DNA of 64,000 nucleotides from positions 138,701,172-138,765,171 of the forward strand of contig NC_058337.1 of the NCBI RefSeq assembly GCF_905475395.1, read 5' to 3'. The stretch comes from Chrysoperla carnea. Taxonomy: Eukaryota; Arthropoda; Insecta; Neuroptera; Chrysopidae. Shown piece after piece: positions 11,346 through 61,171 of the stretch (positions within the stretch are counted from its first letter, which is position 1; the number at the start of each line of letters is the position of its first letter). The translations under genes and the position numbers were made by a program. The notes under the pieces are model-generated. The model was given only the letters and a program-made list of their open reading frames with translations. It made no database searches and was not told the origin of the DNA.

Positions 11346-12010
11346 GTCGGGCAGAAACCATAACACTTACTCTATATTTAAAATGCTATGGTAACCCCCA
11401 CAGAACCGTGCTTGCGATTTTCCCGCACACGGCTCTTCAATAAAACATTTACTATCAAAACTAGAATTAATACATCTTTGCTCTTTTAGCTATTTGATTG
11501 GGTTTAACCTGCAGCACTATTATAACCTCAGCGTGTTATCTTGAACGGTACTCAACCAAACGTTCTATTGCTGACCGCTTCCCCATGTACATAGCTTTCC
11601 TATGCTCCGAGTACTATCAGTCAGTCCGACTTTTTCTGTATCATTTGTCAGTTCTTGCCTGTTTTGACTTGTTCCAACATACTCTTGCAAGAACACAGAA
11701 GATCTCCCAAGTTTACATAAACTCCATCTCATACCATGCCACGGACTTCGACCCCGATAGAGTGAGTGGTGACTTACCATTGCATCACCCTTCATGCTGC
11801 CTTCGGCACTATGGAGAACATCGACCTCTATGATCTTGTATATTTCGGGGCTCAACACCTTCACTTGCGTTGTAGCCTAATATGTCGCTTCTATTGGCTT
11901 CATCACATTTGTCACCTCCTGCAATGCAATAGTTGCCTCTATGCTGTTGGTTAGACTTTGCATAGATCGGATTCTCACCGACTGATTTTTACGCACTTCC
12001 CTTGGCGCAC
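11346..12010 (-). ncRNA. ORF-less group II intron
   Basis: On the minus strand the element begins GTGCGCC, the group II 5' consensus GUGYG, and ends …CCCGAC, the AY 3' end. The exons join to TATATTGA|CGCCACATC, which restores SYIDATSLE of the IS982 transposase. A domain V hairpin precedes the 3' end. At 665 nt there is room for domains I-VI but no intron-encoded reverse transcriptase, so mobility would need a protein from elsewhere. The open frames inside it are chance frames in the RNA. Confidence 0.85.
11403..11435 (-). ncRNA. domain V of the group II intron
   Basis: The minus strand reads GAGCCGTG…GAAA…CACGGTTC: an 8-bp lower stem with the catalytic AGC-type triad (GAGCC), a bulge and a GAAA-type loop, about 33 nt as expected. 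Domain VI follows to the 3' splice site at 11346. Confidence 0.82.
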
Positions 12011-14397: not shown

Positions 14398-14404
14398 CAG
14401 CAAA

Positions 14405-14701
14405 GTAAATCAATCGAGCTATTAGTATCAGTTAGCTGCACACATTACTGTGCTTCCACACCTGACCTATCAACGTGGTGGTCTTCCACGGCTCTAATGG
14501 GGAAGTCTAGTTTTGAGGTGGGTTTCCTGCTTAGATGCATTCAGCGGTTATCCCTTCCGTACTTAGCTACCCAGCTGTGCCGTTGGCATGACAACTGGTC
14601 CACCAGGGGTACGCCCACCTCGGTCCTCTCGTACTAAAGGCAGATCCTCTCAAACTTCCTACACCCACGGCAGATAGGGACCGAACTGTCTCACGACGTT
14701 C

Positions 14702-14752
<51 letters not shown>

Positions 14753-14753
14753 T

Positions 14754-14799
<46 letters not shown>

Positions 14800-14828
14800 G
14801 ATTTCGTCGCTATGGACGCTTGGAAATC

Positions 14829-14859
<31 letters not shown>

Positions 14860-15320
14860 TCGTTGAGCGATGACCCTTCCACTCGGGACCACCGGATCAC
14901 TATGACCGACTTTCGTCTCTGCTCGTCTTGTCAGACTCGCACTCAGGCTAGCTAATGCCATTGCACTCTAAAAGTTGATTTCCGACCAACCTGAGCTAAC
15001 CATCGCACGCCTCCGTTACTCTTTTGGAGGCGACCGCCCCAGTCAAACTACCCACCATGCATTGTCTCGGACCCTGATTCAAGGGTCTCGGTTAGATGTC
15101 AAGAACCAAAAGGGTGGTATCTCAAGGATGACTCCACAAAGGCTGACGCTTCTGCTTCATAGTCTCCCACCTATCCTGCACATTTGATTCTTAACACCAG
15201 TGCAAAGCTATAGTAAAGGTTCACGGGGTCTTTCCGTCTGACCGCGGGAACTCCGCATCTTCACGGAGAATTCAATTTCGCTGAGTCGATACTGGAGACA
15301 GCGGGGAAATCGTTACGCCA

Positions 15321-15391
<71 letters not shown>

Positions 15392-16081
15392 CACTGGGAC
15401 TTCAATTCAGAACTTGCACCCCTCCTCTTAATCTTCCAGCACTGGGCAGGCGTCAGACCCTATACTTCGTCTATTGACTTTGCAGAGCCCTGTGTTTTTA
15501 ATAAACAGTCGCTACCCCCTAGCTTGTGCCACCCACAAATGGTTGCCCATATGTAGGTCATCTTTCTTCCGAAGTTACAGATGCAATTTGCCTAGTTCCT
15601 TCAGCATCGTTCTCTCAAGCGCCTTGGTATACTCTACCTGTCCACCTGTGTCGGTTTCGGGTACGGTCTATAATGAAGGTGTTATTTCCTGGAAAATATT
15701 CGCTGCACAATCAATCCAATAAGACTATACAACTTACTACTTTCGTCACATCCTTCAGGTTCAGGAATATTAACCTGATTCCCATCGATTACGCCTTTCA
15801 GCCTCACCTTAGGGACCGACTAACCTTGCGCAGATTAACTTTACGCAAGAACCCTTGGACTTTCGGCGAGAATGTTTCTCGCATTCTTTATCGCTACTTA
15901 TGTCAGCATTCTCACTTCCGATACCTCTAGCAAACCTTACGGTTCACCTTCACAGGCTTACGGAACGCTCCGCTACCACTCACACCAAATGTGTGAATCC
16001 GCATCTTCGGTACATGACTTGAGCCCCGTTACATTGTTGGCGCAAGAAAACTTATTTAGACTAGTGAGCTATTACGCTTTC

Positions 16082-16113
<32 letters not shown>

Positions 16114-16700
16114 TAGTTGTTTTGGTCTTCTCACATCCTTTAACACTTAGTCATGTTAAAAAGATTTAGGGACCTTAGATGGCGGTCTGGGCTTTTTCCC
16201 TCTCGACTATGGACCTTAGCACCCATAGTCTGTCTGCTATGCTATACTCATCGGCATTCGGAGTTTGATTGAGTTTGGTAAGTCTGTTGGACCCCCTAGC
16301 TCATTCAGTGCTCTACCTCTGATGGTAACCGCTATAACGCTCTACCTAAATAGATTTCGCGGAGAACCAGCTATATCCGAGTTTGATTGACCTTTCACCC
16401 CTAACCACAGCTCATCCCCTACTTTTTCAACAGTAGTGGGTTCGGTCCTTCAGCGGATTTTACTCCGCTTTCAACCTGACCATGGCTAGATGACTCGGTT
16501 TCGGGTCTAATTCATCTAACTATAGTTGCCCTATTCAGACTCGCTTTCGCTACGCCTATACCTAACGGCTTAAGCTTGCTAGATAAACTAAGTCGCTGAC
16601 CCCTCATACTAAAGGTACGCCGTCACAAAACATAAATGCTTGCTCCGACTGCTTGTAAGCATTTGGTTTCAGATACTATTTCACTTCCTTTGTCGTGGTA

Positions 16701-16742
<42 letters not shown>

Positions 16743-17170
16743 TAGAGAGTACTTAGGCTTAGAGGGTGGTCCCCCTATGTTCAGACAGGATTTCACGTGT
16801 CCCGCCTTACTCAAGGAATTCAAACTTTTTACCTATACGGGACTATTACCCTCTACGGTCAACCTTTCCATGTTGTTTTAGTTATTTTTTTGAAGCCACT
16901 GGCCTGGTCCGCGTTCGCTCGTCACTACTAACGGAGTCTCGGTTGATGTCCTTTCCTCCAGCTACTTAGATATTTCAGTTCGCTGGGTTTGCCTCATATA
17001 GCTATGTATTCACTATACAATACCTAATAAATTAGGTGGGTTTCCCCATTCGGAAATCTTCGGATCAAAGCTTATTCGCAGCTCCCCGAAGTTTATCGCA
17101 GCGTATTACGTCCTTCATCGCCTTCTAATGCCAAGGCATCCACCAAATGCTCTTATTATATTTACTTACG
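14405..17170 (-). rRNA. rrl: 23S ribosomal RNA
   Basis: The 5' end has GGTGGATGCCTTGGC (17140 region). Conserved landmarks across the gene include the peptidyl-transferase area, the sarcin-ricin context CAGTACGAGAGGACC (about 14620 region in complement) and the 3' end region. It is about 2.77 kb long. There is no 16S gene beside it, which fits the split rRNA operon of Rickettsia. Open frames predicted over this stretch are spurious. End positions are approximate. Confidence 0.93.
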
Positions 17171-38188: not shown

Positions 38189-39608
38189 ATGCTACATGTA
38201 AATTTTACTGAGGTAGAATCATTAAATACTCAAGCATTAATAGTGTTTATTGATGACAAATTAAAACTTGATAGTGAACTAATAAACCTTGACCAACAAC
38301 ATCATGGTTTGATCTCCAAGACTATTGCCAATAAATTACAATTTACTGGTGAATATGGGCAGATCAAAATTATTCCTTCTGTTGTTAAGTCAGGGGAAGT
38401 AAAATATTTAGTATTAGCAGCGCTTGGAAGTGAAGAAAAACTAACTGAGGTTAAGATTGAGGAATTAGGTGGTAAAATCTTACAAAATGTTACTAATGCT
38501 AAAATCGCTACTATTGGCTTAAAAATTAAGAATAGAATAAGCAGCTTTGCATCATCGCTTGTTGCATCTTTAATTGCTAGTGGTGCGTTACTTGCTTCCT
38601 ACAGATTCGATAAATATAGAACTACTTTAAAAGAAGCAGATAAGTTTGTTGTAGAATCATTTGAAATCTCTACAGATAATAACGTAGAAGCAGCAAAGTT
38701 GTTTGAAGTTAAAAAATTAATTGCTGAAGGGGTCTTTTTCACAAGAGATATTAGTAACGAGCCATCAAATATTAAAACTCCACAAATATACGCTGAAAGA
38801 ATAGCAGAAACACTAGAAGAATTAAATGTCGATGTTTCTATTCTTGGTGAAACAGAAATGAAAAATCTTGGCATGGGAGCTCTTCTTGGAGTTGGTCAAG
38901 GTTCACAAAATGAATCAAAGCTAGTGGTAATGGAATATCAAGGTGCAAGCAAAGATGCTCCTTATATTGCCCTAGTCGGAAAAGGAGTTATTTTTGATAC
39001 TGGTGGCATATCTCTAAAGCCATCGAGTAATATGCATTTAATGAGATATGACATGTGTGGTTCTGCCGCAGTAGTTGGTACTATGATTGCGGTTGCTAGT
39101 CAAGAATTGCCGGTAAATATCGTAGGTGTTGTAGGGCTTGTTGAAAATATGCCATCAGGTAACGCACAACGTCCTGGGGATGTTGTAACTACTATGTCAG
39201 GGCTAACTGCTGAAGTTTTAAATACCGATGCAGAGGGGCGTTTAGTTCTTGCCGATGCGATTTGCTGGTTGTTTTTCTAATAACGATGAGCTTGCTGATA
39301 AACTAATAAAAGCTGGTGAAGAAGTAAATGAAAAATTATGGAGAATGCCGCTTCATGAAGACTATGACGCAATGATTAACTCCGACATAGCTGATATGGC
39401 AAATATCGGTAATGTGCCAGGAGCTGCTGGAAGTTCTACCGCTGCTCATTTTATCAAACGTTTTATTCAAGAAGGGGTAGAATGGGCACATTTAGATATA
39501 GCAGGCGTTGCAAACAGTAATAAACCCTCATCACTTGGTCCGAAAGGGGCAGTAGGTTATGGTGTAAGACTACTTGAGAAATTTATAAAGGAAAATTATG
39601 AGCAGTAA
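38189..39608 (+). pseudogene. pepA: leucyl aminopeptidase PepA, internal deletion and frameshift
   Basis: An M17 zinc aminopeptidase. The N-domain is open. The catalytic domain has VGKGVIFDTGGISLKPS, MRYDMCGSAAVVGTM and NTDAEGRLVLADA. At about 39257 the sequence jumps to AGCFSNNDELADKLI, so roughly thirty residues (the segment usually reading WYAQEKF…DVATLTGA) are missing and the frame changes; the rest runs to 39608. The protein would lack part of its active-site region. Its stop overlaps the mipZ start by 11 bp. Confidence 0.9.
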
Positions 39609-40386
39609 GCCTTATATATTTGTTATAGGTATTGAAAAAGGTGGGGCAGGTAAAACAACCTGCTCTATCCATTTAATAGTGGCACTACTTTATCAAAAAT
39701 ATTCAGTTGTAAGTATTGACAGTGATTCTCGCCAAAGCTCTTTAACTAATTACCTAAAAAATCGAGACTTGTATAATGAGCAAAACCCTGACAAACCGGT
39801 ATTAGTCCCAAAGTATTTCCATGTCAAAGAAAGTTCTGAAGAAGAGCAAGCTAATAGTTTTGAGCAGATATTAAAGGATAATATGGATGCTGATTATATA
39901 GTAATCGATACGCCTGGTAGCCATACTGCTTTATCAAGGCTTGCTCATTCTTATGCTGACACCATTATTACGCCGATAAATGATAGCTTTTTAGATTTAG
40001 ACGTAATAGCAAAAGTTGATAGCAAAGATGAAATTATTAGTCCTTCAATCTATAGCCAAATGATATGGGAACAGAAAATGCAGCGTGCTAGTCGTGATAG
40101 AGGGAGTATAGATTGGATAATTTTGCGTAATCGTTTAAGTAACCTTGATGCTCTAAATAAAAGACGTGTTAGTAACGTATTGAACAAGCTTGCTAAAAGA
40201 ATTAATTTTAAACTCGCTGATGGTTTTAGTGAACGTGTGATATATAGGGAGTTATTTCTGCAAGGCTTAACTCTGCTTGATTTAAAAGTCGCAAATTATG
40301 ACCGAGTATTTAACAGCTCACATATAGTTGCTCGTCAGGAACTAAAAAATTTCTTAAAATTCTTAAATATTACTTTTGAATCCTAG
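39598..40386 (+). CDS. mipZ: MipZ-like division-plane ATPase (ParA family)
   Basis: 262 residues, whole. Deviant Walker A EKGGAGKTTCSIHL (residues 13-26), switch II DYIVIDTPGSHTALSRLAHSYAD, and the MipZ-specific SIDWIILRNRLSNLDALNKRRV and GFSERVIYRELFLQGLTLLDL. In alphaproteobacteria MipZ forms a bipolar gradient with ParB and blocks FtsZ polymerisation away from midcell. It overlaps pepA, so the two are translationally coupled. Confidence 0.9.
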   Translation: MSSKPYIFVIGIEKGGAGKTTCSIHLIVALLYQKYSVVSIDSDSRQSSLTNYLKNRDLYNEQNPDKPVLVPKYFHVKESSEEEQANSFEQILKDNMDADYIVIDTPGSHTALSRLAHSYADTIITPINDSFLDLDVIAKVDSKDEIISPSIYSQMIWEQKMQRASRDRGSIDWIILRNRLSNLDALNKRRVSNVLNKLAKRINFKLADGFSERVIYRELFLQGLTLLDLKVANYDRVFNSSHIVARQELKNFLKFLNITFES

Positions 40387-41046: not shown

Positions 41047-42854
41047 ATGCATAAATATAGAACTCATAATTGTAATGAATTAAAAATTTCCGATGTTGGG
41101 ACTGAAGTAAAACTGTCTGGTTGGGTACATAGAAGAAGAGATCATGGCAATCTAGTTTTTGTAGATTTACGTGATCATTATGGCATAACACAAATCGTGT
41201 TTACCGACCAAAATCCGCAGCTTATGGACGATGCTAGCCGTTTACGTTATGAGTCAGTTGTAACAGTAGTTGGGAAAGTAGTAGCAAGATCAGAAGAGAC
41301 TATTAATAACACACTTCCTACCGGTCATATAGAAGTTTTAGCTGGTGAGTTTATTGTTGAATCAGCTGCTGATACTCTGCCGTTTGTGATTAATACGGAA
41401 AAAGATGCACCTGAAGACTCAAGGCTTAAACATCGCTTTTTAGATTTAAGACGTGAGAAGTTGCATAATAATATAATGCTACGTTCACAAATTATTTCTT
41501 ATATTCGTCATTTAATGACTGCAAGAGGATTTACCGAGTTCCAAACACCAATTCTTACCGCTAGCTCACCTGAGGGAGCAAGGGATTTCTTAGTCCCAAG
41601 CAGATTACATCCGGGCAAGTTTTATGCATTACCGCAAGCACCGCAACAATTTAAGCAGCTATTGATGGTATCGGGGTTTGATCGCTATTTCCAAATCGCT
41701 CCATGTTTTGTGATGAAGACGCAAGAGCAGATAGGTCACCAGGTGAGTTTTATCAGCTAGATATCGAAATGTCGTTTGTTACGCAGGAAGATATATTCAG
41801 CACAATCGAACCTGTAATGTATGAGCTATTTACAAAATTTACAGATAAGAAAGTGTCAGAAGTACCCTTTATCCGTATTCCATATAATGAATCTATGCTG
41901 AAATATGGTTCTGATAAGCCTGATTTACGAAACCCTATTGTAATTGCTGATGTGACGGAAATTTTTAGAGATTCAGACTTTACTATTTTTAGGGAAAATA
42001 TCAAAAAAGGTAGTATTGTCCGAGCAATTCCAGCTCCTGATGCAGCTTCGCAACCTCGTAGTGTCTTCGATAAAATGATAGAATTCGCAATATCGGAGGG
42101 AGCTGGAGGACTTGGCTATATTCAGTTTAGCGAAAGCGGCGAAGCAAAAGGACCAGTTGCAAAATTCTTAAGCACTCAGCAATTAGAAGATTTAAAGAAT
42201 GCTGCTAATATTAGCAATGGAGATGCGGTATTTTTCGCTAACGATAAAAAAGATAAAGCAGCCAAACTTGCCGGTAAAGTAAGAATTAAGCTTGCCGATG
42301 AGTTAGATTTACTTGAAAAGGATTGCTTTAAATTCTGCTGGATTACCGATTTTCCATTCTATGAGCTAAACGAAGAAACCGGTAAAATTGATTTTAGCCA
42401 TAATCCATTTTCTATGCCTCAGGGTGGATTAGAAGCTCTTGAAAACGCAAAAACAACCGAAGAGTTGCTAGAGCTTATGGCATATCAGTATGATATTGTT
42501 TGTAACGCCATAGAGCTTTCTAGTGGTGCTGTAAGAAATCATAAGCCGGAAATAATGTATAAGGCATTTGCTATAGCTGGTTATAGCGAAGAAGAAGTGG
42601 ATAAACGATTTGGCGGTATGATCAGAGCTTTTAAATTTGGTGCACCACCACATGGCGGCATAGCTCCAGGTATAGACCGAATCATTATGCTACTTGCGGA
42701 GGCTACTAATATAAGAGAGATAATTGCTTTTCCATTAAATCAGCAAGCCGAAGATTTATTAATGAACGCTCCGAATTATGTGGAAGATAAGGCGTTGAAA
42801 GAACTAAGTGTCATGCTATCCCCATCTGCTAGAAAGAATACGGAAAAAAAGTAG
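41047..42854 (+). pseudogene. aspS: aspartyl-tRNA synthetase, one frameshift
   Basis: A class II synthetase charging tRNA-Asp (and tRNA-Asn in many alphaproteobacteria). The start [18 protein letters not shown] is followed by the OB-fold anticodon domain [19 protein letters not shown], then [22 protein letters not shown] and [11 protein letters not shown]. The frame shifts near 41712 (FQIAPCF then [22 protein letters not shown]) as if one base were lost, and runs on through [14 protein letters not shown] (motif 3) to KNTEKK. It is an essential gene in any free or symbiotic cell. Confidence 0.93.
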
Positions 42855-48529: not shown

Positions 48530-48766
48530 AAGTCAATAAGGTTGCGAATATTTTGATATTTTTTATCTTTAATAGCAATAGATAAAAAAACCAAAAAATA
48601 ATTTTAAGTATCCGTTTAAAATTTTGTACTATCGCAATCATGAGTATTTGAATCTGTGTTTTCTGCACACTTCTAAATTTTGCTCTTCGTAAAACATTAT
48701 GCTCTTTAGCTTCACCAAATAGATCTCCTATTTTGTACTTTCTCTCAATTAGTTTTTTCTTAAAAG
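48530..48766 (-). pseudogene. IS1182/IS5-type transposase, C-terminal fragment
   Basis: Reads KKLIERKYKIGDLFGEAKEHNVLRRAKFRSVQKTQIQ, then ILMIAIVQNFKRILKIIFWF…NIRNLIDF. The F(G)E.K..H.LRRA.FR…Q.L..A..QN.KR pattern is the C-terminal signature of these DDE transposases. It is cut by the IS6 end. The N-terminal fragment at 63459 may belong to the same type. Confidence 0.6.
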
Positions 48767-48839
48767 GCTCTGTCGCATCTATACATCATACCCAAGATTT
48801 TCATTAAAACCTAAGATTTTAGATGTTATGATGCCATTA

Positions 48840-49491
48840 ACATTTTAAAGTTTTCAAAAGTAGATACCTGATTGTTGCTTCTGATACCTGACTATTTGTC
48901 CTTTTTTAATCATACGGATATTTTCTATACCAGCAATGGTAATCTTAGCACTACGAAAACTCTTAAAACCCAGCATTGGCTTAGTTCGCTTCTTAATAAA
49001 TCTATGATCTTGCTCTATCAAATTGTTCAGATATTTATTTTGAAGTATTTGTATCTTTTGTTTTTTAGGTAAGTTTTTATTAAAGTCAGCAAGAGCGAAG
49101 TATTACTACCACTCTTATCTATTACTACCTTTTTAGGTATATCGTTACTCTTAAAGGCTTTTCTGAAAAATGCCTTAGCAGCTGCAGCATCTCTACGTTT
49201 TCTTAGCAAGAATTCAATAGTATCACCACGAGGGTCAATAGCTCTATATAGATATACCCATTTACCATTAACCTTGATATATGCATTAACCTTTATATGT
49301 CTCGTCCATTCTCCAGCTATGACCAATCGGTCTCTTGCTTTTCCTAACCTCTCGATCTATCAAAGGAGAACACTTAATTAACCATCTTTTAAAGTAGCAT
49401 GATCTATTTTAGTGCCTCTAATACTTACCATCTCCTCAAGTTCTCTGTAACTTAATGAAATTCTACATTTCATATACACAAATAACATTAT
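48840..49491 (-). pseudogene. IS6-family transposase, main part, broken
   Basis: SYRELEEMVSIRGTKIDHATL, then (M)DETYIKVNGKWVYLYRAIDPRGDTIEFLLRKRRDAAAAKAFFRKAF (first D region), VVIDKSGSN (second D), and NNLIEQDHRFIKKRTKPMLGFKSFRSA (E). Frames change near 49380 and near 49085. IS6 elements transpose by replicative cointegrate formation. Confidence 0.85.
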
Positions 49492-49852
49492 CATTCTGCT
49501 CGTGACTTCTGAACTGGCCGGTTGTGTGCTTCTAAATATACATCGTAAAATATATCACATTTTTGTTTTTTTTATTGAAACAATTATTGATTATATGATA
49601 TTAGTATACTTAAATTCAACTTAAAAAAGAAAAAATATAATATATAATATTTTTATTAACACTGCCATTATTAATATTTAATAAATAAACTTGTTATTAA
49701 TAAATTTGTTTATTGGCACTGTTTGTTTGTCGTGTTACATAGTCAACCGCATGTTTTTATTCAAGATAAGTACATAGTTTTAATTTCAATAAACTTTATT
49801 TAATATTTTTAATTATAAATTTTCTGTTTTTATATTTTAGAAATTAAACAAA

Positions 49853-51277
49853 ATGAAGAAATGTACTTTTCCGATTTTACGACAAACCAGAAGTGCCATT
49901 AAATCCTCCACACAGTCGGCTCCAGATAATAAATTAAACATTAGTTATAGTACTATTATTGTTGAAGACGATGCAGATGGTAGATTTATAAAACATGACG
50001 AAGTTGCAATGGATCTTCGAAATAAATTAGTTCAGGTGCAAAATTCTAATAAGGAGTGTGAACAGAAAATAATGGACTTAGAAGCCATAATAAAAGAGAA
50101 AAATTCAACTATTGAATTTTTAGATAAAAAACTTGATTTGTATTTAAATGGTAAAGTAACTGTAAGTAGTGTAGGTTCCCAAACGGAGAAAATTCAGAGA
50201 ATTTGTGCTGCCACGCAATCTGAGATCAGGGAATTGGAGGTGGTAGACTCATTCATGCAAACTGAAATAAATATAGCAAACAATATAATTGACTTGTGCC
50301 CTCAGTTTGATGTTTCTAACGACACCATTCTTTCGAAAAATGTTGAATCGCAACCACTAGAAGTACCTTACCAGGTTGATAATAATGAAAGTGGCTCTAG
50401 CTCAGTCAATATTCATAATATGGAACAAAAAAATAACAAAACAAAATTAATTAAAAAATCGAAAATATCTTTGAAAAGATCGAAAAAAAGTAAGTTTGCC
50501 AACGTTAGTAGTGGGTTATCATCTTCAAATATGACGAATGAAGTCTCTAATTCAAGTACTCATGTTACCCCTCGAATTACCCCGCGTGTATTAATTGTAT
50601 CTGACCAAATTGGTAAACAAATGTCTATTTGTTTGAGAGAATTGTTGCCTCACAACTTTTCGGTTTCCGCTTTAATTAAAAGTCATGATACTCATGAAAA
50701 TATTATTAAAGCCGTAAAAGAACAAGTAAATAGTTTTACGAAATCGGATCACATAATTGTTATGCTTAGCTCATACCATGTGACTTCAAACAATGAAAAC
50801 GACATTGGTATTAAATACTTGAAAAAAATTTTACTTGAACTATTGAATATCACGAAAAATACAAATCTAATTCTGTCCACACTGCCTTTTAGAAAAGACA
50901 TAAACGAATTCAATGATATGATTTTCAATATTAATCAGTTTATGGAAAATGAATTATTTAGATGCGCCGATACTTTAACTTTATATACTAACAAACTTTT
51001 GATTTTAAATACTGACTTCCACAAAAATGGTAAAGATATTAACTATAGTGGTACACGTCGGTTAGCACGAACTATTAGAAAATACATTGCACAGGAATTG
51101 AGCGACGATCGTATACTCCCTCTGACAGAAGCAAATGCCGTTAAAAAAATTCCTGACAAAAATATACCCCAGTTTCCTTCGACAACTGGTTGTACAAAAA
51201 CTGTTCCGACTTCTAAAAGAATAAAAACTAATAAATTAAAAAACTTACTAGACAAGCTTCTAAAAGTTCTCAAGTAG
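49853..51277 (+). CDS. LINE ORF1 protein
   Basis: 474 residues. A coiled-coil segment (about 55-95, LRNKLVQVQNSNKECEQKIMDLEAIIKEK), a low-complexity basic region (about 195-225, KTKLIKKSKISLKRSKKSK), then an alpha/beta domain RVLIVSDQIGKQMSICLRELL … IIVMLSSYHVTSNNENDIGIKYLKKILLELLNITKNTNLILSTLPFRKD resembling the SGNH/esterase-like domain in ORF1 of CR1-type LINEs. Such proteins coat element RNA. No frameshift. Confidence 0.8.
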   Translation: MKKCTFPILRQTRSAIKSSTQSAPDNKLNISYSTIIVEDDADGRFIKHDEVAMDLRNKLVQVQNSNKECEQKIMDLEAIIKEKNSTIEFLDKKLDLYLNGKVTVSSVGSQTEKIQRICAATQSEIRELEVVDSFMQTEINIANNIIDLCPQFDVSNDTILSKNVESQPLEVPYQVDNNESGSSSVNIHNMEQKNNKTKLIKKSKISLKRSKKSKFANVSSGLSSSNMTNEVSNSSTHVTPRITPRVLIVSDQIGKQMSICLRELLPHNFSVSALIKSHDTHENIIKAVKEQVNSFTKSDHIIVMLSSYHVTSNNENDIGIKYLKKILLELLNITKNTNLILSTLPFRKDINEFNDMIFNINQFMENELFRCADTLTLYTNKLLILNTDFHKNGKDINYSGTRRLARTIRKYIAQELSDDRILPLTEANAVKKIPDKNIPQFPSTTGCTKTVPTSKRIKTNKLKNLLDKLLKVLK

Positions 51278-54200
51278 TAAATCCCAACTTGCTATCAAGA
51301 TCTATTTTGCACGTAAATATTCGTAGTTTGAGAGCCAATCATCTTCACTTAGAGGAATTTGTTGCGAATAAGTTCACTATTCAACCCAGTTTTGTCTGCT
51401 TAACGGAACACTGGCTAAATGAGGATGAATTGAGTTTTTATCAGATTAAGAATTATGCTCCCATATCATACTTTTGTAGACAGGATTTTAAGAATGGCGG
51501 GTGTTTAATTTTAACTTCGAACAACTTTGTTGGAAAAATAAAAGTAAAAGAGAATCTGAATAATTTAAGCATTGAAAAAGTTTTTGAATGCGCAGCTATC
51601 GAAGCTTCTATTGACGATAAGTCTAAAACGATTCTCAATTTAATTAAGAGAAACGAACTATGAAGGTGTCGCAGTGGAAGTCTTTTTGGATCGGTCGGAA
51701 TATGGCGCGTAATTTCAAATGGAAATCACTAAATTTATATTGGTTATGTGATGTTGGCTCTACTGTGAACGACTTAAGTGTCAACATGGATTTGAACAAA
51801 CGTAAGTAATCTCAATTAAATTTCAATATTCTGTTTATTCAATTTCTTTTTTTTTGTAAAATTTTTGTAAAACGTTTCTACTATTCACAATTACATTTCT
51901 TTCGGTTTTATCAAACGTATATTGCAAAACAATGGTAAATTTAGCATAAATTATTTGACATGTGAATGAGTAGATAACCTAGGTTTTTGTATTTAATAAA
52001 ATTAAAAGGAATTTAAAATTTGTTTTAGGACAACACAGCTTAATACTAATCTGACAGCGATGATTCCTGGTGAGATTCTGTTAAAAGTAAGGGTGCATAC
52101 AGAAATATTATTATATTATTTTTCTATTAATAGAAGGATATATACATATACACATTCGGTCAAGGGCCGTTTGCCGTTACAGTACGGGCGAGATGTATGG
52201 ATCTTCGAATCAATTAGATCGTCTTCACCACCACCTGGTGCCGCGAAATGGAGAGTGGCTGTCCCTTGTCGTTAATAGGCGGCTATTGGCCAGCACCAAT
52301 GTGACAAGGGGCCACTCGACGGCTTGATTAATGGATGCACCAGGAATCACCACACACGGTAATTAAAAAAAAACTTAACTAATATTATTTCCTAAATTTA
52401 AAATGTTTGTTAAAACCCCCAACCTTTTATTAACGTCACTTTCCCCATTTATTTTAGATTATGTCCTTTGGCCGGCAAATTAATTGATAAAGAGGAAAAG
52501 ATAAATACAACTTACATAGTCATTCATGAATGGAACCGGGGTCGAACAACCGGACGGCCAGGTGAGAAACGCAGCAGCACACAGCGGAATCACTGGGTGA
52601 TCCTTGAGGTATACCAGATTTTCTTCCATAATTTGTGTTGATCGAATCGGCCTGCATGCGGTGGTGTTGCCGCTGATGGGCGATGTTGAATTTCCAGACA
52701 ACAAAGGATGAAATAACCATGCGGTCGTCCACTCGAAACTTGTATCACCAGGACACTACACGTGAGTACCGGTCGTTGTGTTTTTTTTGTTTTATTGTTT
52801 CTGATTAATAAGTCGTGGTCGATCCATTAATTATAATTACGATGTTGGTCCGATTTTTTTTTATGTTTAATAATCGTTGTTGATTTATTAATTTTTTAAA
52901 TACGATGTCGTTCCAATTTGATTTATGTTCGATTCTATTTTATTTTTATATTTCACCACGAGATGAATATAATTCCGAGCTCTTCACTTGCTCGATGCAA
53001 AGGTTAAAGTATCTTGTTTTTTCATCAAGAAAACCATCAGGTCACTTGTTGACTCGTTGTTTTTGTTTTTTTATAGTGCCTGGTGCCGCCGTGATCCAAT
53101 CACGACCTTTCGCGCCGTGTTTACCGCCTGCGATGCTGCGTGCGATTCTCTGTTTGTGCGTCGTGTGCCTGGCCACCCGGGTATCCACTTTCGGCCATTT
53201 TTTTATTTTTATGATTTGTAATGAAAAGAAATTGTATTTTAATTTTAAATAAATTTTAAATATTTTACTGACATTTTGTTTTTTGTTTTTTTTTGTAAAT
53301 TTTTTGTAAATTTTTTTTTTTCCTTTTTTTTTTTGTTCGGTGGGTATAATGTAGCCTAAGCCGAACTCCTTGTGTGAAACCAAATATGAGTATCGTCTCA
53401 TCCACCCCCACTGGCTAAAATGCTACGGCATTTCCTCTACTCTTTCATTATAGGGCTTAACGCTTCAATGTGGGCTTTATATCGCGTACGAGTTGTCTAC
53501 GCACTCGAGCTCACATGAGATTGGTGACGTGGTAAAGGGACATTATTATGTTTCTGATGGCTTTGGGGACGGAAATTCGTCTTAGGCGATGTTTCCCCAC
53601 GAGTTTCACCAGGAGGTCAGATTTGAGGGCATATCCTGTGACATCTTCCCCAGATTCAATTCTGGAGAGGATGAGTCTATGCTCTTCATCTTCCTCCTGA
53701 TGTTTTCGCAGAGAGGCACGGCTTTGGGGACGGAAATTTTCTTAGGCGATGCTTCCCCACGAGTTCCACCAGGACGTCAGATTTGAGGGCATAACCTATG
53801 ACATCCTCTCCAGATTCAATTCTGGAGAGGATGAGTCCATGCTTTTCATCTTCTTCCTGATGTTTTCGCAGAGAGGCAAGGCTTTGGGGCACTTCGTCCA
53901 AAGGTGAATTTTAGCGTCATCAGAAGGTGATAGGGTTTCTAAAGGTTTTTTTGTGTTTTTGGAGGTTTTGTAATGACCCTGAGCGTGGGGCGATTGGAGA
54001 ATATTTCGGCTTAGACTACATAACCACTCACCCATATTTATTAATTGGTTCTCCATGGCCTGAAGACGGTGTTGTTTGTCAGCATGTCAGCACTAAGTTC
54101 GGTTTGGGTTCTTATAGGGTTAAACACACGTGATGGAGGAGATTGATGTGTCGAAGTTGGTGGGGCTGTTGACGTTGAGGATGTGGTGGCTGTTGTGGAT

Positions 54201-57200
54201 GTCGATGTTGAAGGCGCCGTCGTGAAATCGAGCCATGGAAGTTGGTTGACTACTGTAGTTGGCGGCGGTGCGACGGGTACTGACATTGTTGTTGGCGGCG
54301 TTGTGAAGCCCGGAGAAGTCACCTCGGGTTGTGGATTACAGCTGGTGGTGGGTGTGAATATGCGTCCGCTCCTGGTGCCCGGCATGTTAGACTCCACGAT
54401 TGTTCAACGATTATATGTAAGTGTTATAGAAAACAGAAAAAGATTTGTAGAAATAAGCTTAATTAAAGTTAACAAAAAATATTGAAAAAAATTAAATTTA
54501 TAGGATTATACGATTAATAGTTGTTTATTTTCAAGTTGTCTTAGATAACGCCGATTGAAAATTACGCCATTTACCAAACGCTCTGTTACCATAAAACGAT
54601 TCTCAATTTAATTAAGAGAAACGAACTATGAAGGTGTCGCAGTGGAAGTCTTTTTGGATCGGTCGGAATATGGCGCGTAATTTCAAATGGAAATCACTAA
54701 ATTTATATTGGTTATGTGATGTTGGCTCTACTGTGAACGACTTAAGTGTCAACATGGATTTGAACAAACGTAAGTAATCTCAATTAAATTTCAATATTCT
54801 GTTTATTCAATTTCTTTTTTTTTGTAAAATTTTTGTAAAACGTTTCTACTATTCACAATTACATTTCTTTCGGTTTTATCAAACGTATATTGCAAAACAA
54901 TGGTAAATTTAGCATAAATTATTTGACATGTGAATGAGTAGATACATAACCTAGGTTTTTGTATTTAATAAAATTAAAAGGAATTTAAAATTTGTTTTAG
55001 GACAACACAGCTTAATACTAATCTGACAGCGATGATTCCTGGTGAGATTCTGTTAAAAGTAAGGGTGCATACAGAAATATTATTATATTATTTTTCTATT
55101 AATAGAAGGATATATACATATACACATTCGGTCAAGGGCCGTTTGCCGTTACAGTACGGGCGAGATGTATGGATCTTCGAATCAATTAGATCGTCTTCAC
55201 CACCACCTGGTGCCGCGAAATGGAGAGTGGCTGTCCCTTGTCGTTAATAGGCGGCTATTGGCCAGCACCAATGTGACAAGGGGCCACTCGACGGCTTGAT
55301 TAATGGATGCACCAGGAATCACCACACACGGTAATAAAAAAAAAACTTAACTAATATTATTTCCTAAATTTAAAATGTTTGTTAAAACCCCCAACCTTTT
55401 ATTAACGTCACTTTCCCCATTTATTTTAGATTATGTCCTTTGGCCGGCAAATTAATTGATAAAGAGGAAAAGATAAATACAACTTACATAGTCATTCATG
55501 AATGGAACCGGGGTCGAACAACCGGACGGCCAGGTGAGAAACGCAGCAGCACACAGCGGAATCACTGGGTGATCCTTGAGGTATACCAGATTTTCTTCCA
55601 TAATTTGTGTTGATCGAATCGGCCTGCATGCGGTGGTGTTGCCGCTGATGGGCGATGTTGAATTTCCAGACAACAAAGGATGAAATAACCATGCGGTCGT
55701 CCACTCGAAACTTGTATCACCAGGACACTACACGTGAGTACCGGTCGTTGTGTTTTTTTTGTTTTATTGTTTCTGATTAATAAGTCGTGGTCGATCCATT
55801 AATTATAATTACGATGTTGGTCCGATTTTTTTTTATGTTTAATAATCGTTGTTGATTTATTAATTTTTTAAATACGATGTCGTTCCAATTTGATTTATGT
55901 TCGATTCTATTTTATTTTTATATTTCACCACGAGATGAATATAATTCCGAGCTCTTCACTTGCTCGATGCAAAGGTTAAAGTATCTTGTTTTTTCATCAA
56001 GAAAACCATCAGGTCACTTGTTGACTCGTTGTTTTTGTTTTTTTATAGTGCCTGGTGCCGCCGTGATCCAATCACGACCTTTCGCGCCGTGTTTACCGCC
56101 TGCGATGCTGCGTGCGATTCTCTGTTTGTGCGTCGTGTGCCTGGCCACCCGGGTATCCACTTTCGGCCATTTTTTTATTTTTATGATTTGTAATGAAAAG
56201 AAATTGTATTTTAATTTTAAATAAATTTTAAATATTTTACTGACATTTTGTTTTTTGTTTTTTTTTGTAAATTTTTTGTAAATTTTTTTTTTTTCCTTTT
56301 TTTTTTTGTTCGGTGGGTATAATGTAGCCTAAGCCGAACTCCTTGTGTGAAACCAAATATGAGTATCGTCTCAAGTCAATTGTACTAGTTTGTATTTATA
56401 GACCACCTAGTGGTAATATTGAAACGTTTTTTAGTAGATTGGAACAATGTCTTATTATTATTAAAAGTGAAAAAAAACACTTTGTGGTTTGTGGTGATTT
56501 TAATATAAATCAATTAGATAAGCAGGATGAGAAGGTTAAGACATTAGTTAATTTGTTAACAACCTTTGACAGTAAATTGGCTATTACTGATAAGCCAACA
56601 AGAATTACTACAAGCTCTTCCAGCTTGTTAGATAATTTTTTCGTTAATTTACCAAACTTCTATGCTTATGTGGAAGATTGCGCATTTTCCGACCATGACG
56701 CCATTGTTCTGCAATTTAGTGCTTTGAAACCACAATCTAAGAAATGTAAAATAATTCAAAAGCGTCATATAACTCAGGAAAATCTTGTTAAACTAAACCG
56801 GCATTTGGAAACGGAAAAATGGGAGCTAGTCTTTGAGAGTAACGATATTAATAATAAATTTAATAGTTTTTTAAATACCTTCGTGTACTACTATGATTTG
56901 ACATGTCCTTCCTCAAATGTTAGAATTTTTAATTATTCCAGACCTGAATGGATCACCCCTGGTATCATAAAATCGTCCCAAAACTTGAAAGTACTCAATA
57001 TTCGGAAAAAAACGGCAAAAAATAAAAATTTCTTAAATTATGTCAAAAAGTACAAAAAAATATACAAGAAAGTTATTACAATGGCCAAGAAAATTTCCTT
57101 GATAAAAAAATTAAAAAACACGAATAACAATCCCAAAGTTGTATGGAACATTATAAAAAATGAAACTTTAAACATATCTAGGGGCATTAAACACATAAGT

Positions 57201-58883
57201 ATAAATAATATTGAAATATGCGACCCTATGTCCATGGTCGACACTTTAAATGAGTGTTTTATTAATTTGGGCTCTGCTATTGGTCAGGATAATAACGCCA
57301 AAAACATAATTGAAATAAAAAATTTTGAAAAAACTATTTTTATTGATGAAATCGATTCCCGTGACATAGAACAAATTATTGGAAATATGAAATCCAAAGA
57401 CTCCATGGACTACTTAGGCATTTCCAGTAATGTTTTAAAATCGGTTTCAAAAACCTTATTGGCTCCTCTAGTCGAAATTGTTAATTGTATGCTAAGGGAG
57501 GGAATCTTTCCTGATCGTGGCAAATTAGCACGAATAGTACCCCTTCAAAAGAAACCCAATAATATGGATGTCAGTAATTTTCGTCCGATATCATGTTTAC
57601 CTATCTTCAGCAAAGTTCAAGAGAGAGTTATATTTAATAAAATTTCAAATTTTCTAACTCGGTTCAACATATTGACACCCGATCAATTTGGATATCGAGA
57701 GAATACAGGAACTACAAATGCAATTTTTGCCGTCACGGATCATATTCTCACGAAAATTAATGAAGGTTTTAAAGTAGCCTCTTTATTTTTTGATTTTTCT
57801 AAAGCCTTCGATCGCGTGAATCATAATTTACTCCTCTCCAAAATTTATGCATATGGTATTCGTGGCCAATGTTATAAACTTATAGAGTCATATTTATCTA
57901 ATAGAGCTCAATTTGTTGAATTAAACATAGACGGAAATACTTTCAAGTCAAGTTGGGGAGCAATCAGGTCTGGGGTCCCACAAGGGTCTATTCTTGGGTC
58001 ATTGCTGTTTCTCATATTTATTAATGACTTGCCAAATTCATTTAGTAAATTATTTTGTAAAGTTGCACTCTTTGCCGATGATACGACCATCGTCGTTTCA
58101 CATAAAGATACCGATGAGCTTATGAAAGTCATTAACAATGTACAGGAATTAATGGACAGCTGGTGCCATGAAAACGATTTGCTTCTAAATCGTAACAAAA
58201 CAGCAATTGTGTGTTTTGGTGGTGGAGTCGCCTTTACGCATAATCTGTTTGTAAGTAAAACGACATTTCTAGGAGTTGAAATAGATTCAGGAATGAATTG
58301 GAAATCTCATATTGACACCTTATGTGTAAAATTGAGCAGAGTGTGCTTTCAATTAAGAGCGTTAAGATCAAGAGTTGACCAAAAGACACTACTGTCAGTT
58401 TACTATGCAAATTTTGCTTCAATTATGACATATGGCATAGTAATATGGGGTGCTTCAGTAAATGCCTCAAAAATATTTAAAATACAGAAAAGAGCAATTA
58501 GAATTATTTTTAACTTAAAAAGAACTGAAAGTTGTAAAATATTCTTTCTGAACAACAGAATACTGACATTTCACTCTCATTATATTTTTGAAATCTACAA
58601 ATTTTTTATCCAAAATAAAAATGTGTTCGAAATTAATATAAATCAGGGCAATCGTTATATGATTCGAAATCCATCTGAATATGTTAATCCCAGGTGTAAA
58701 TATTCATTTTTTAAAAAAAATACGAGGTATCTTGCAATTCTTTTTTATGGTAAAATCAGTAAAGGGTCAACCGTTAATGACATTATGAGAGATAATAGAA
58801 TGGCTCCGATCAATGCAGTTCGTAGGTACCCGCAACAGCAGTGTTTCTATTCATTGGAGGAAGGACTAAAAAGTAATTTTTAA
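51260..58883 (+). CDS. LINE ORF2: apurinic-type endonuclease and reverse transcriptase, interrupted by an LTR element
   Basis: The first part (51260-51620) gives the endonuclease start ILHVNIRSLRANHLHLEEF … LTEHWLNEDEL … GGCLILTSN … ECAAIEASIDDK. The second (56376-58883) continues SIVLVCIYRPPSGNIETF, VVCGDFNINQLD and FSDHDAIVLQF (catalytic D, N, SDH), then the RT: LARIVPLQKKPNNMDVSNFRPIS, SLFFDFSKAFDRVNH, GVPQGSILGSLLFLIFINDLP, LFADDTTIV. The frame is the same on both sides of the 4.75 kb insert. No ATG opens the frame; it overlaps the ORF1 end, suggesting reinitiation or frameshifting. Confidence 0.9.
51624..53400 (-). repeat. LTR (3' LTR in element orientation)
   Basis: 1777 bp, near-identical to 54592-56373. 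It contains intron-like GT…AG stretches and several short frames that also occur in its twin; I take none of these as genes. Confidence 0.8.
53401..54591 (-). other. interior of the LTR element
   Basis: It contains about two tandem units of roughly 160 bp (from about 53558 and 53720, sharing GATTCAATTCTGGAGAGGAT) and, on the minus strand, a short proline/threonine/serine-rich frame (54041-54397). No reverse transcriptase, integrase or capsid signature is seen. Confidence 0.6.
54592..56373 (-). repeat. LTR (5' LTR in element orientation)
   Basis: 1782 bp; differs from the other LTR only by a few short length changes, so the pair diverged little since insertion. Confidence 0.8.
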
Positions 58884-59583
58884 ACTTAATATATGTATTA
58901 AGTAATTGTATTTATAATTTTTAATTTCTGACACTTTCCGTGTTGATCTTAATCACCGGAATTCGATAATTTTATATTAATTAATTAATTAATTTATTTA
59001 TTTTTTAATTAAATGACATTTACCGTGGAAATTTTTTATACACCGGTAATCAATTTTTTTTTTCTTTTTTATTATATAACATGTACCGTGGAAATTTTTA
59101 TACACCGGTATCAATATTTTTTTAATTAAATGACATTTACCGTGGAAATTTTTTATACACCGGTAATCAATTTTTTTTCTTTTTTATTATATAACATGTA
59201 CCGTGGAAATTTTTATACACCGGTATCAATATTTATTTATTTTTTATAATATTTGACACTTTCCGGTAGATTTTTTTTTATCACCGGAAAAAGAAATTTA
59301 ATTAATATATTATTTTTTGTTTTTAGGTAAACAAATTTCATATTTATTTATTTTAGACATTCTTACTTTTTAAGGATGTCAACTATCCTACTCGTGAGTT
59401 TTTGATGGTTTTCCACGATGTTTAAGGTGAATACCGGGATAGTCTACGAAAAGTCGGCCATCACCGCATTATCTTTTAATATTATTATTATAATTATAAA
59501 TTTTTTTTTTTTTTTTGACGAATTCTATGTATACATTGTATATCGAAAGAACGAATAAAATATTATTATTATTATTATTATTA
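58884..59583 (+). other. LINE 3' UTR with tandem hairpin repeats and (ATT)n end
   Basis: A unit of about 107 bp containing TTTACCGTGGAAATTTTTTA then TACACCGGTA is repeated about twice (59011-59225), with diverged relatives before and after (GACACTTTCCG…CACCGG). A poly-T tract, GACGAATTCTATGTATAC and (ATT)n close the element. Confidence 0.75.
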
Positions 59584-59589
59584 TTTCAG

Positions 59590-59640
59590 GCGATGAGCAA
59601 AACCCTTTAAAGTTTCTCAAGTGTTACTATTTGTTTAGCT
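59590..59640 (-). pseudogene. IS6 transposase N-terminal part, right of the LINE
   Basis: The minus strand reads NFKGFCSSPEII, the start of the IS6 transposase; the stop-bearing segment out to 59686 is the IS end. It continues left of the LINE at 49491. Confidence 0.7.
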
Positions 59641-59686
59641 CCATATAACACATATCATCATACTTTGCAATAGATGCAACAGAACC

Positions 59687-59944: not shown

Positions 59945-60190
59945 AGTAAATTATTTAATGTAAGTCGTGATACTATATATCAATGGAAAAAATTAAAGGA
60001 TAAGCAAGGTACTTTAGAGGCAGCGACTGGTTATCAGAGAGGTCATAGTCATAAGATCAAAGATTCAGAATCTTTTAAAGAATTTTTCAAAGCTAATATG
60101 AATAAAACATCAAAGGATTTAGCAAAGCAATGGGGCAATATTTCATCTGTAACTATTTTAAGACAAATCAGAAAGCTTGGTTATAGCTAT
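59945..60190 (+). mobile_element. IS630 (type B) internal fragment
   Basis: Encodes SKLFNVSRDTIYQWKKLKDKQG…QIRKLGYSY only; both ends of the element are missing. Bracketed by type 2 and type 1 IS200 sequence, which creates a chimeric open frame. Confidence 0.85.
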
Positions 60191-60773
60191 CAATTACTAC
60201 CGTCTAAAGCCGGTAGTTTGGTTTACGCTTGCAAAGCAGATTAAAAGCGTAAACGCTAAAACTCTGATATTCTAAAATCATCTTTTTTATGACATTCTTC
60301 TTGTTGCTCTATATACTTCTGTACTGCTTCTGAATTCACATTACCAACTGTAACAACAAAATACCCTCTAGCCCAAAGATGTTGACCCCAATATCGCTTA
60401 CGAAGTAGTTCAAATTCCTGTAGCAATTTACGACTACTCTTTCCTTTAATATATTGTAACACCTTAGATATTGAGATACTCGGTGGAACTGATACTAATA
60501 TATGAACATGATCAGGACTTATGCTGCCTCTAATTATATCTATGTAATTAGCTGCACATATTTCCTGAATTACTTCCCTTGCTGTACTTGCTATTTGCCC
60601 AGTTAAAACTCTATACCTGTACTTTGTACAAAACACTATATGATACTTTAAATCATACAGGCTATGAGACCCTCTCCTATATTCCATCTCTTCCTCTAGT
60701 AACCTATTAGATAGATTATACTAAAGTGTTCGCCTAAAGGCGAGGGTGTTAACCCTATCCCACTTAACTACAT
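60191..60773 (-). mobile_element. IS200-like element (type 1), intact
   Basis: 583 bp, both hairpin ends; inserted between an IS630 fragment and an IS4-type fragment. Confidence 0.88.
60256..60687 (-). CDS. tnpA: TnpA Y1 transposase (type 1)
   Basis: 143 residues with a few substitutions (QIASTAREV, IIRGSIS). HUH motif HVHILV and the KYIEQQ helix are present. Confidence 0.88.
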   Translation of the reverse strand: MEYRRGSHSLYDLKYHIVFCTKYRYRVLTGQIASTAREVIQEICAANYIDIIRGSISPDHVHILVSVPPSISISKVLQYIKGKSSRKLLQEFELLRKRYWGQHLWARGYFVVTVGNVNSEAVQKYIEQQEECHKKDDFRISEF

Positions 60774-61171
60774 AAAAGGCATTAATTTACTATCGTGTTT
60801 GATTCGTTATGGAGATATCAGTTTTCCTGTAAGTTATGAAGTTATAAAAAAGGAGATAAAATTTTGTGATATAGAGACTAAAAAAGAAAAACGTAAATCC
60901 AGCGTTAATAAAAATGAGTTATTTCGTAAGCTAGTTAAACAAGCCATAAATAATGACATAAAATTTGCTTACGTGCTTGCTGATAATTGGTTTTCATCCA
61001 AAGAAACAGTAAAATTTATACACTATGATTTAAGCAAATATTTTATTTTTGGTATTAAGTCCAATAGGACAATAGCTTTTTCGGAAGATGCTAAACTACA
61101 AGGATATTTTAAACGAATTGAATCATTAGATATGCAAGATAATACTACTTTAACAGTTTGGCTCAAAGAGG
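60774..61171 (+). pseudogene. IS4-type DDE transposase, internal fragment
   Basis: RYGDISFPVSYEVIKKEIKFCD…VLADNWFSSKETVKFIHYDLSKYFIFGIKSNRTIAFSEDAKLQGYFKRI: the D(N/S)WF.S…IK.NR pattern of the second catalytic region in IS4/IS701-like transposases. Both ends are cut off by IS200 elements. Confidence 0.7.

What the first reader, a model, noticed from the sequence alone, without database searches (positions are those of the whole stretch)
48767..59686. An animal LINE sits inside a bacterial IS6 transposase gene
Both halves of one IS6 transposase are kept, left (MLFVYMKCRISLSY…) and right (NFKGFCSSPEII) of a full-length CR1/Jockey-group LINE with 5' UTR, ORF1, ORF2 and an (ATT)n tail. A random assembly join would not rejoin the same IS on the far side. 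LINE insertion needs eukaryotic target-primed reverse transcription, so the Rickettsia DNA is most simply explained as lying in an arthropod nuclear chromosome. The alternative, a LINE transposing into a living bacterial genome, would be unprecedented as far as I know.
Basis: partly seen in the sequence, partly recalled or inferred. Interest (0 to 1): 0.92.

Follow-up and report, generated by a model that had tools for sequence, protein, structure and literature searches.

The report
Rickettsia genome inside an animal chromosome
A stretch of Rickettsia bacterial DNA spread over about 1.1 million bases lies inside a chromosome-sized piece of an animal genome, where the animal's own jumping genes, including this LINE, have since landed in the bacterial genes.

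Summary
A complete non-LTR retrotransposon (window ~49494-59585) splits an IS6-family transposase gene. Its ends match those of three other full-length copies in the same assembly, and no target bases are visibly lost. The window comes from a 559-Mb assembly, at 138.70-138.77 Mb of a 139.98-Mb scaffold. Rickettsial DNA, nearest the Bemisia symbiont Rickettsia sp. MEAM1, is spread over about C1:138.272-139.408 Mb, mixed with host mobile elements; 0.21 Mb of this was read, without N. The borders run from satellite into a recG-like helicase and from dnaE into AT-rich sequence. A 16.35-kb Polinton with a perfect 6-bp duplication splits a RelA_SpoT domain just outside the window. Bacterial aspS and 23S each occur once, and aspS is frameshifted. 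Best explanation: a recent nuclear Rickettsia insertion later colonised by host elements. This is known for Wolbachia; my searches listed none for Rickettsia. Raw reads were not available.

The parts
48766..49493 (-). Left (3'-coding) piece of the IS6-family transposase gene with its outer terminal repeat
   Evidence: DDE_Tnp_IS240 in two ORFs; alignment to IS6 in L001 and L002; single copy in the assembly
59586..59686 (-). Right (N-terminal) piece of the same IS6 gene with the other terminal repeat
49494..59585 (+). Complete LINE (non-LTR retrotransposon, CR1/Jockey-group-like), itself interrupted by an LTR element
   Evidence: 5' and 3' ends coincide with those of three other full-length copies in the assembly; 65 match pieces on C1-C6
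49853..51277 (+). LINE ORF1, 474 aa: predicted N-terminal helix (coiled-coil-like) and C-terminal SGNH-hydrolase-like domain
   Evidence: low-confidence model, mean pLDDT 45
51289..51623 (+). LINE ORF2, 5' part (start of the endonuclease region, by position; no Pfam match on its own)
   Evidence: reading frame resumes at 56378
56378..58883 (+). LINE ORF2, 3' part: endonuclease and reverse transcriptase
   Evidence: Exo_endo_phos_2 and RVT_1
58986..59252 (+). Repeats in the LINE 3' UTR (about 61/115-bp units)
   Evidence: also in other copies
59561..59585 (+). (ATT)n tail of the LINE
51620..51623 (.). Target-site duplication AGTC of the LTR element (left copy)
56374..56377 (.). Target-site duplication AGTC of the LTR element (right copy)
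54592..56373 (-). 5' LTR (1.78 kb) of the LTR element; primer-binding-site-like TGGTAACAGAGCG follows it at 54591 downward
   Evidence: 99.66% identical to the other LTR
53401..54591 (-). Internal region of the LTR element, about 1.2 kb, with a tandem 160-bp repeat and no ORF above 120 aa: non-autonomous
   Evidence: its 120-aa ORF has no Pfam match
51624..53400 (-). 3' LTR, preceded by a purine-rich tract
41047..42854 (+). Rickettsial aspS broken by a 1-base deletion; the only bacterial aspS found in the assembly
38189..39620 (+). Rickettsial pepA broken by an 89-base deletion against MEAM1 (end coordinate approximate)
7748..10423 (-). Rickettsial mutS split by a stop codon near 9326
14401..17167 (-). 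Rickettsial 23S rRNA, the only full bacterial copy found in the assembly
60188..60777 (-). IS200-like element used to map the Rickettsial block: 42 listed match pieces, all on C1 138.279-139.385 Mb

Best explanation
A stretch of a Rickettsia genome (close to Rickettsia sp. MEAM1) entered the germline nucleus of its host and joined the end part of chromosome C1, next to a satellite array, where it now spans about 1.136 Mb, host elements included. Freed from selection, its genes began to break. Host mobile elements then landed in it by their usual routes. A LINE copied itself into the IS6 transposase gene by target-primed reverse transcription, its (ATT)n tail ending on the target's own ATT-rich stretch. 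A non-autonomous LTR element later integrated into that LINE's ORF2, leaving a 4-bp duplication. A Polinton integrated into a RelA/SpoT-like gene, leaving a 6-bp duplication. Shown in the assembly: the nesting, the element ends, the duplications, the borders, the span and the gene breaks. Inferred: the integration routes (from the known kinds of element), the single entry event, the dates, and that the host is an arthropod.
For: Window placed at C1:138701172-138765171 of a 139,979,878-bp scaffold in a 559-Mb assembly. The LINE has 65 match pieces on six scaffolds, and three full-length copies about 98% identical to this one whose ends equal the IS6 junctions. The left IS6 piece is single-copy, so a misjoin through another IS6 copy is unlikely. 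LTR element with 4-bp duplication and near-identical LTRs. Polinton 138,684,397-138,700,749 with 1.35-kb inverted repeats and ATTATA on both sides; the left flank matches RelA_SpoT profile positions 2-32 (E 0.00085, below the curated cut-off) and the right flank positions 31-112 (E 2e-23). IS200: all 42 listed match pieces (40 of 75 candidates scored) on C1 between 138,279,412 and 139,385,371. Borders: satellite to a DEAD-box helicase (recG by my reading) near 138,272,165, and dnaE to AT-rich sequence near 139,408,140. No N in the window or in L093-L146. aspS present once and frameshifted, pepA with an 89-base deletion, mutS with a stop.
Against: No reads or coverage could be examined. About 0.21 Mb of the 1.136-Mb span was read; gaps elsewhere are possible. 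Most changes on the window's branch look like bacterial evolution: 28 replacement to 63 silent changes in three genes, against 13 to 42 on the MEAM1 branch (Fisher p 0.45), so neutral decay is not shown by substitutions and the transfer must be recent. A living Rickettsia contig could have been removed before deposition, so its absence does not show the animal was uninfected. That the right flank is host sequence rests on its composition and lack of long bacterial frames, not on a match.
Confidence: 0.95

Rival explanations
1. A contig of a living Rickettsia symbiont was wrongly joined into chromosome C1, and the host elements in it are chimeric joins.
For: Most gene sequence still looks bacterial and constrained. 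Chromosome assemblies can misplace symbiont contigs (general knowledge).
Against: A complete LINE, an LTR element and a Polinton each have their exact termini in bacterial genes or in one another, two with perfect target duplications. Both borders and all stretches read are free of N. The only bacterial aspS found is frameshifted.
Confidence: 0.03
2. The LINE retrotransposed into the chromosome of a living Rickettsia.
For: The junctions look like a true insertion. A human LINE fragment in Neisseria is known to me from memory only; one search did not list it among the 6 of 26 papers shown.
Against: An LTR element and a Polinton, which by general knowledge use different integration enzymes, lie in the same block, and the block is joined at both ends to non-Rickettsial-looking sequence in a chromosome-scale scaffold.
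Confidence: 0.01
3. The block is nuclear but was built by several transfers or later rearrangement, not by one entry of most of a genome.
For: Only about 0.21 of 1.136 Mb was read, mobile elements are frequent in it, and gene order was compared with MEAM1 over only about 4.9 kb.
Against: Listed IS200 copies are spread over the whole block and lie on no other scaffold. pepA, mipZ and aspS keep the MEAM1 order. aspS and 23S were each found once.
Confidence: 0.25

Closest known systems
Nuclear Wolbachia insertion (nuwt) of Drosophila ananassae, PMC4299567 (3 of 3 passages for my terms read)
   Same: Large symbiont-derived DNA in a host chromosome, with numerous host retrotransposons integrated inside it.
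   Different: Here the donor is Rickettsia, not Wolbachia; single copies of aspS and 23S were found rather than many copies; a Polinton is also present and the borders can be read.
f element of Armadillidium vulgare (Wolbachia DNA in an isopod), PMC5541319 (search listing only)
   Same: A large symbiont insertion in an arthropod nucleus.
   Different: The f element is linked to female sex determination; no function was tested here.
CR1/Jockey-group LINEs with esterase (type IV) ORF1, PMC4120745 (12 of 15 passages read) and PMC3905857 (search listing only)
   Same: Endonuclease and reverse transcriptase in ORF2, SGNH-like domain predicted in ORF1, short repeat tail.
   Different: Clade not tested by a tree. 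PMC4120745 found the esterase type in the Jockey superfamily only in vertebrate subgroups; this host is probably not a vertebrate (inference).
IS6 (IS240-type) insertion sequences
   Same: DDE_Tnp_IS240 domain; among plasmid records the best-covering matches are Cardinium (two records, 68.8%) and Megaera (70.8%).
   Different: Split by the LINE and frame-broken; no 8-bp target duplication seen at its outer ends (by eye).

Membership tests
Nuclear insertion of endosymbiont DNA | Bacterial sequence continuous with host chromosomal sequence | tested here: met
   Both borders read without N on scaffold C1; the right flank is taken as host by composition only
Nuclear insertion of endosymbiont DNA | Host transposable elements inserted in bacterial genes | tested here: met
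   LINE in IS6, LTR element in the LINE, Polinton splitting a RelA_SpoT domain with 6-bp duplication
Nuclear insertion of endosymbiont DNA | Decay of bacterial genes | tested here: met
   aspS frameshift and pepA deletion, mutS stop. The replacement/silent ratio is not raised
Nuclear insertion of endosymbiont DNA | Spanning reads, host-level coverage, inheritance without infection | not testable with these tools
   No reads or animals available
LINE, CR1/Jockey group | Endonuclease plus reverse transcriptase in ORF2 and an upstream ORF1 | tested here: met
LINE, CR1/Jockey group | Short-repeat 3' tail shared by dispersed copies | tested here: met
   (ATT)n in 5 of 5 copies whose 3' ends were printed
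LINE, CR1/Jockey group | Placement in the clade by an RT tree | not tested
   No labelled reference elements were at hand
LINE, CR1/Jockey group | Target-site duplication | tested here: inconclusive
   The ATT-rich target and tail hide any short duplication
LTR retrotransposon (Ty3/gypsy-like) | Paired LTRs, 4-bp target duplication, primer-binding site and purine tract | tested here: met
   site and tract by eye
LTR retrotransposon (Ty3/gypsy-like) | pol genes | tested here: not met
   Internal region only 1.2 kb, no ORF above 120 aa: non-autonomous, so its superfamily is not assigned
Polinton/Maverick | Long inverted repeats, 6-bp duplication, double-jelly-roll capsid and rve integrase | tested here: met
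   the list of features is recalled, and its DNA polymerase was not matched (575-aa ORF, 0 Pfam families)
IS6 | IS240-type DDE transposase and inverted terminal repeats | tested here: met
   (repeats by eye)
Rickettsia | Closest relatives are Rickettsia | tested here: met
   C-terminal 383 aa of AspRS 96% to Rickettsia sp. MEAM1 and 91% to the Pyrocoelia symbiont, first two of 80 loci kept; no tree made

The most novel reading that the evidence does not exclude
Most of a Rickettsia genome entered an animal chromosome in one recent event and is now a young fossil genome being colonised by three classes of host element, whose nested order and termini can be used to time the transfer.
Probability: 0.6. 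Interest if true: 0.75.

Novelty: new member of a known kind. Interest (0 to 1): 0.68.

Why it matters
Very large symbiont insertions are documented for Wolbachia. A Rickettsia block spanning about 1.1 Mb would show that the process is not special to Wolbachia. Because both borders are readable and host elements with datable LTRs sit inside, it is a good case for timing the transfer and watching bacterial genes decay in a nucleus. It also warns that Rickettsia sequences found in such an animal need not mean infection.

Tried and rejected
Plasmid searches with the IS6 pieces and 23S gave only distant relatives. LINE ORF2 in bacterial genome contigs and in viral contigs: none confirmed (the window's own genome is left out of those). 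LINE ORF2 and ORF1 protein searches found relatives at 39% and 41% for the best hit, from unnamed sources, and one named butterfly protein at 32% (120 of 955 ORF2 hits listed), so the host was not identified. A RING-type ORF (my reading) from inside the block gave no homologue. ORF1 model: low confidence, yet the top PDB matches are mainly GDSL/SGNH-type hydrolases. Test of relaxed selection on three genes: no significant difference. Planned but did not complete: copies of the LTR element, COX1 for host identity, a second mutS. Rejected: misassembly through IS6 copies (left piece single-copy) and a LINE jump into a living bacterium.

Full report
What is in the window. The IS6-family transposase gene lies on the minus strand. 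Its 3' part, with two ORFs matching DDE_Tnp_IS240, is at 48766-~49493 and its N-terminal codons with the other terminal repeat are at ~59586-59686. In relatives (Megaera plasmid L001, Cardinium plasmid L002) the codons on either side are continuous, and the window's two pieces meet without visible loss in an ATT-rich stretch. Between them lies a LINE with ORF1 (474 aa), an endonuclease and reverse transcriptase in ORF2, 3' UTR repeats and an (ATT)n tail.

ORF2 is interrupted between 51623 and 56378 by an LTR element on the minus strand: LTRs at 51624-53400 and 54592-56373, differing by one substitution and two indels; AGTC duplicated at both ends; a primer-binding-site-like TGGTAACAGAGCG next to one LTR and a purine-rich tract next to the other. 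The internal part is only 1.2 kb with no ORF above 120 aa, so the element depends on others. It most likely inserted after the LINE was in place, because it splits the gene the LINE needs to move.

Where the window lies. One search placed the window at C1:138701172-138765171 of an assembly of 559,487,470 bases in 337 contigs; C1 is 139,979,878 bases. The LINE ORF2 query gave 65 match pieces on scaffolds C1-C6 (53 of 2392 candidates scored, so a lower bound; some rows are relatives at 34-44%). Nine other copies were examined. Three are full-length, beginning at the window equivalent of 49491-49494 and ending at 59580-59585. Of the nine, seven end at 59580-59585 and two matches stop earlier, at 59571 and 59083; of seven read upstream, four are shorter at the 5' end. 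The printed ends show the same 5' start in 3 of 3 and (ATT)n tails in 5 of 5. The IS6 junctions are therefore the ends of a complete LINE. The three full-length copies are 98.0-98.2% identical to it, a shorter one 98.9%.

Extent of the bacterial block. The left piece of IS6 occurs once in full. An IS200-like element has 42 listed match pieces (40 of 75 candidates scored), all on C1 between 138,279,412 and 139,385,371. Sampled stretches inside carry rpoB, rpoC, a ParA-like ATPase, parB, sucA, uvrB and an ABC transporter by Pfam, mixed with mobile elements of eukaryotic kind: Polinton pieces, a weak gag-like ORF below the curated cut-off, tandem repeats by reading. The left border runs from a satellite array into a DEAD-box helicase, recG by my reading, near 138,272,165; the right border runs from dnaE (PHP, DNA_pol3_alpha and finger domains) into AT-rich sequence near 139,408,140. 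dnaE is itself in at least two overlapping frames. The span is thus about 1.136 Mb, mobile elements included; the MEAM1 chromosome is 1,378,618 bases. About 0.21 Mb of the span was fetched, window included, with no N. How much of the span is bacterial was not measured.

A second, independent insertion. Just left of the window a 16.35-kb Polinton (C1:138,684,397-138,700,749) has inverted repeats of about 1.35 kb at 97.8% identity, a double-jelly-roll ORF and an rve integrase ORF, and ATTATA on both sides. The left flank matches RelA_SpoT profile positions 2-32 (weakly, E 0.00085) and the right flank positions 31-112 (E 2e-23) of 113, so the element sits inside one bacterial domain.

State of the bacterial genes. 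Against MEAM1, aspS has a 1-base deletion and pepA an 89-base deletion; mipZ is intact. mutS is split by a stop codon. uvrC, surf1 and addA are also broken or short by ORF and profile coverage, although homopolymer errors were not excluded for these three. dnaQ, rnhA and lpxI are open. The bacterial aspS, searched with its C-terminal 383 aa, occurs once; the other two matches are weak, 35-48%, elsewhere on C1. The bacterial 23S occurs once in full; the other 40 rows are short, 70-79% matches (40 of 173 candidates scored). Over pepA, mipZ and aspS, 28 changes on the window's branch are replacement and 63 silent, on MEAM1's 13 and 42, not different. So these genes spent nearly all of that branch under bacterial selection, and the transfer, if nuclear, is recent.

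Mechanism. The simplest history is entry of Rickettsia DNA into the host nucleus, loss of gene function, and insertion of host elements by their ordinary routes: target-primed reverse transcription for the LINE, integrase for the LTR element and the Polinton (established knowledge of these element kinds, recalled). The nesting and termini are shown; the entry step, single or multiple, is inferred.

Comparison with what is known. Large Wolbachia insertions with numerous host retrotransposons inside are described in Drosophila ananassae (PMC4299567, passages). Seven searches listed no paper that, by title and start of abstract, reports a large nuclear Rickettsia insertion; four of the lists were capped (15 of 84, 12 of 16, 15 of 235, 10 of 24 shown). 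PMC7992394 says a nuclear origin cannot be ruled out for some Torix Rickettsia detections (2 of 2 passages). The library lacks most subscription journals, so this is not proof of absence. I rate the finding a new member of a known kind.

After a first attempt at filing I recounted the calls, added, and corrected statements on the right IS6 piece, the LINE copies that do not share the ends, the fraction of the block read and the capped lists.

Noticed in passing
C1:138,684,397-138,700,749 (L101, L100), just left of the window: Polinton of 16.35 kb with 1.35-kb inverted repeats and ATTATA target duplication, splitting a bacterial RelA_SpoT domain.
   Followed up: yes
L144 1576-3000 (C1:138,271,575-138,272,999): One open frame of 475 aa runs from the satellite repeat straight into the recG-like helicase across the left border.
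   Followed up: partly
G000 scaffold C6 (38.6 Mb), first 14 Mb: 40 of the 65 listed LINE match pieces lie on C6, all below 14 Mb: a LINE-rich region, perhaps a heterochromatic or sex-linked arm.
   Followed up: no
G000 C5:49945395-49945546: An IS6 remnant of about 150 bp at 80% identity outside the block, possibly from an older transfer.
   Followed up: no
window 49853-51277: LINE ORF1 is predicted, at low confidence, to carry an SGNH-hydrolase-like domain, a type that PMC4120745 found only in vertebrate subgroups of the Jockey superfamily.
   Followed up: partly
window 11346-11975; C1:138,450,000 (L121): Group II intron pieces in the Rickettsial block, with a reverse-transcriptase-like ORF in L121 by reading.
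   Followed up: no
window 1-64000: Many IS copies in the window differ from each other by about 1-4% and are often truncated or nested.
   Followed up: no
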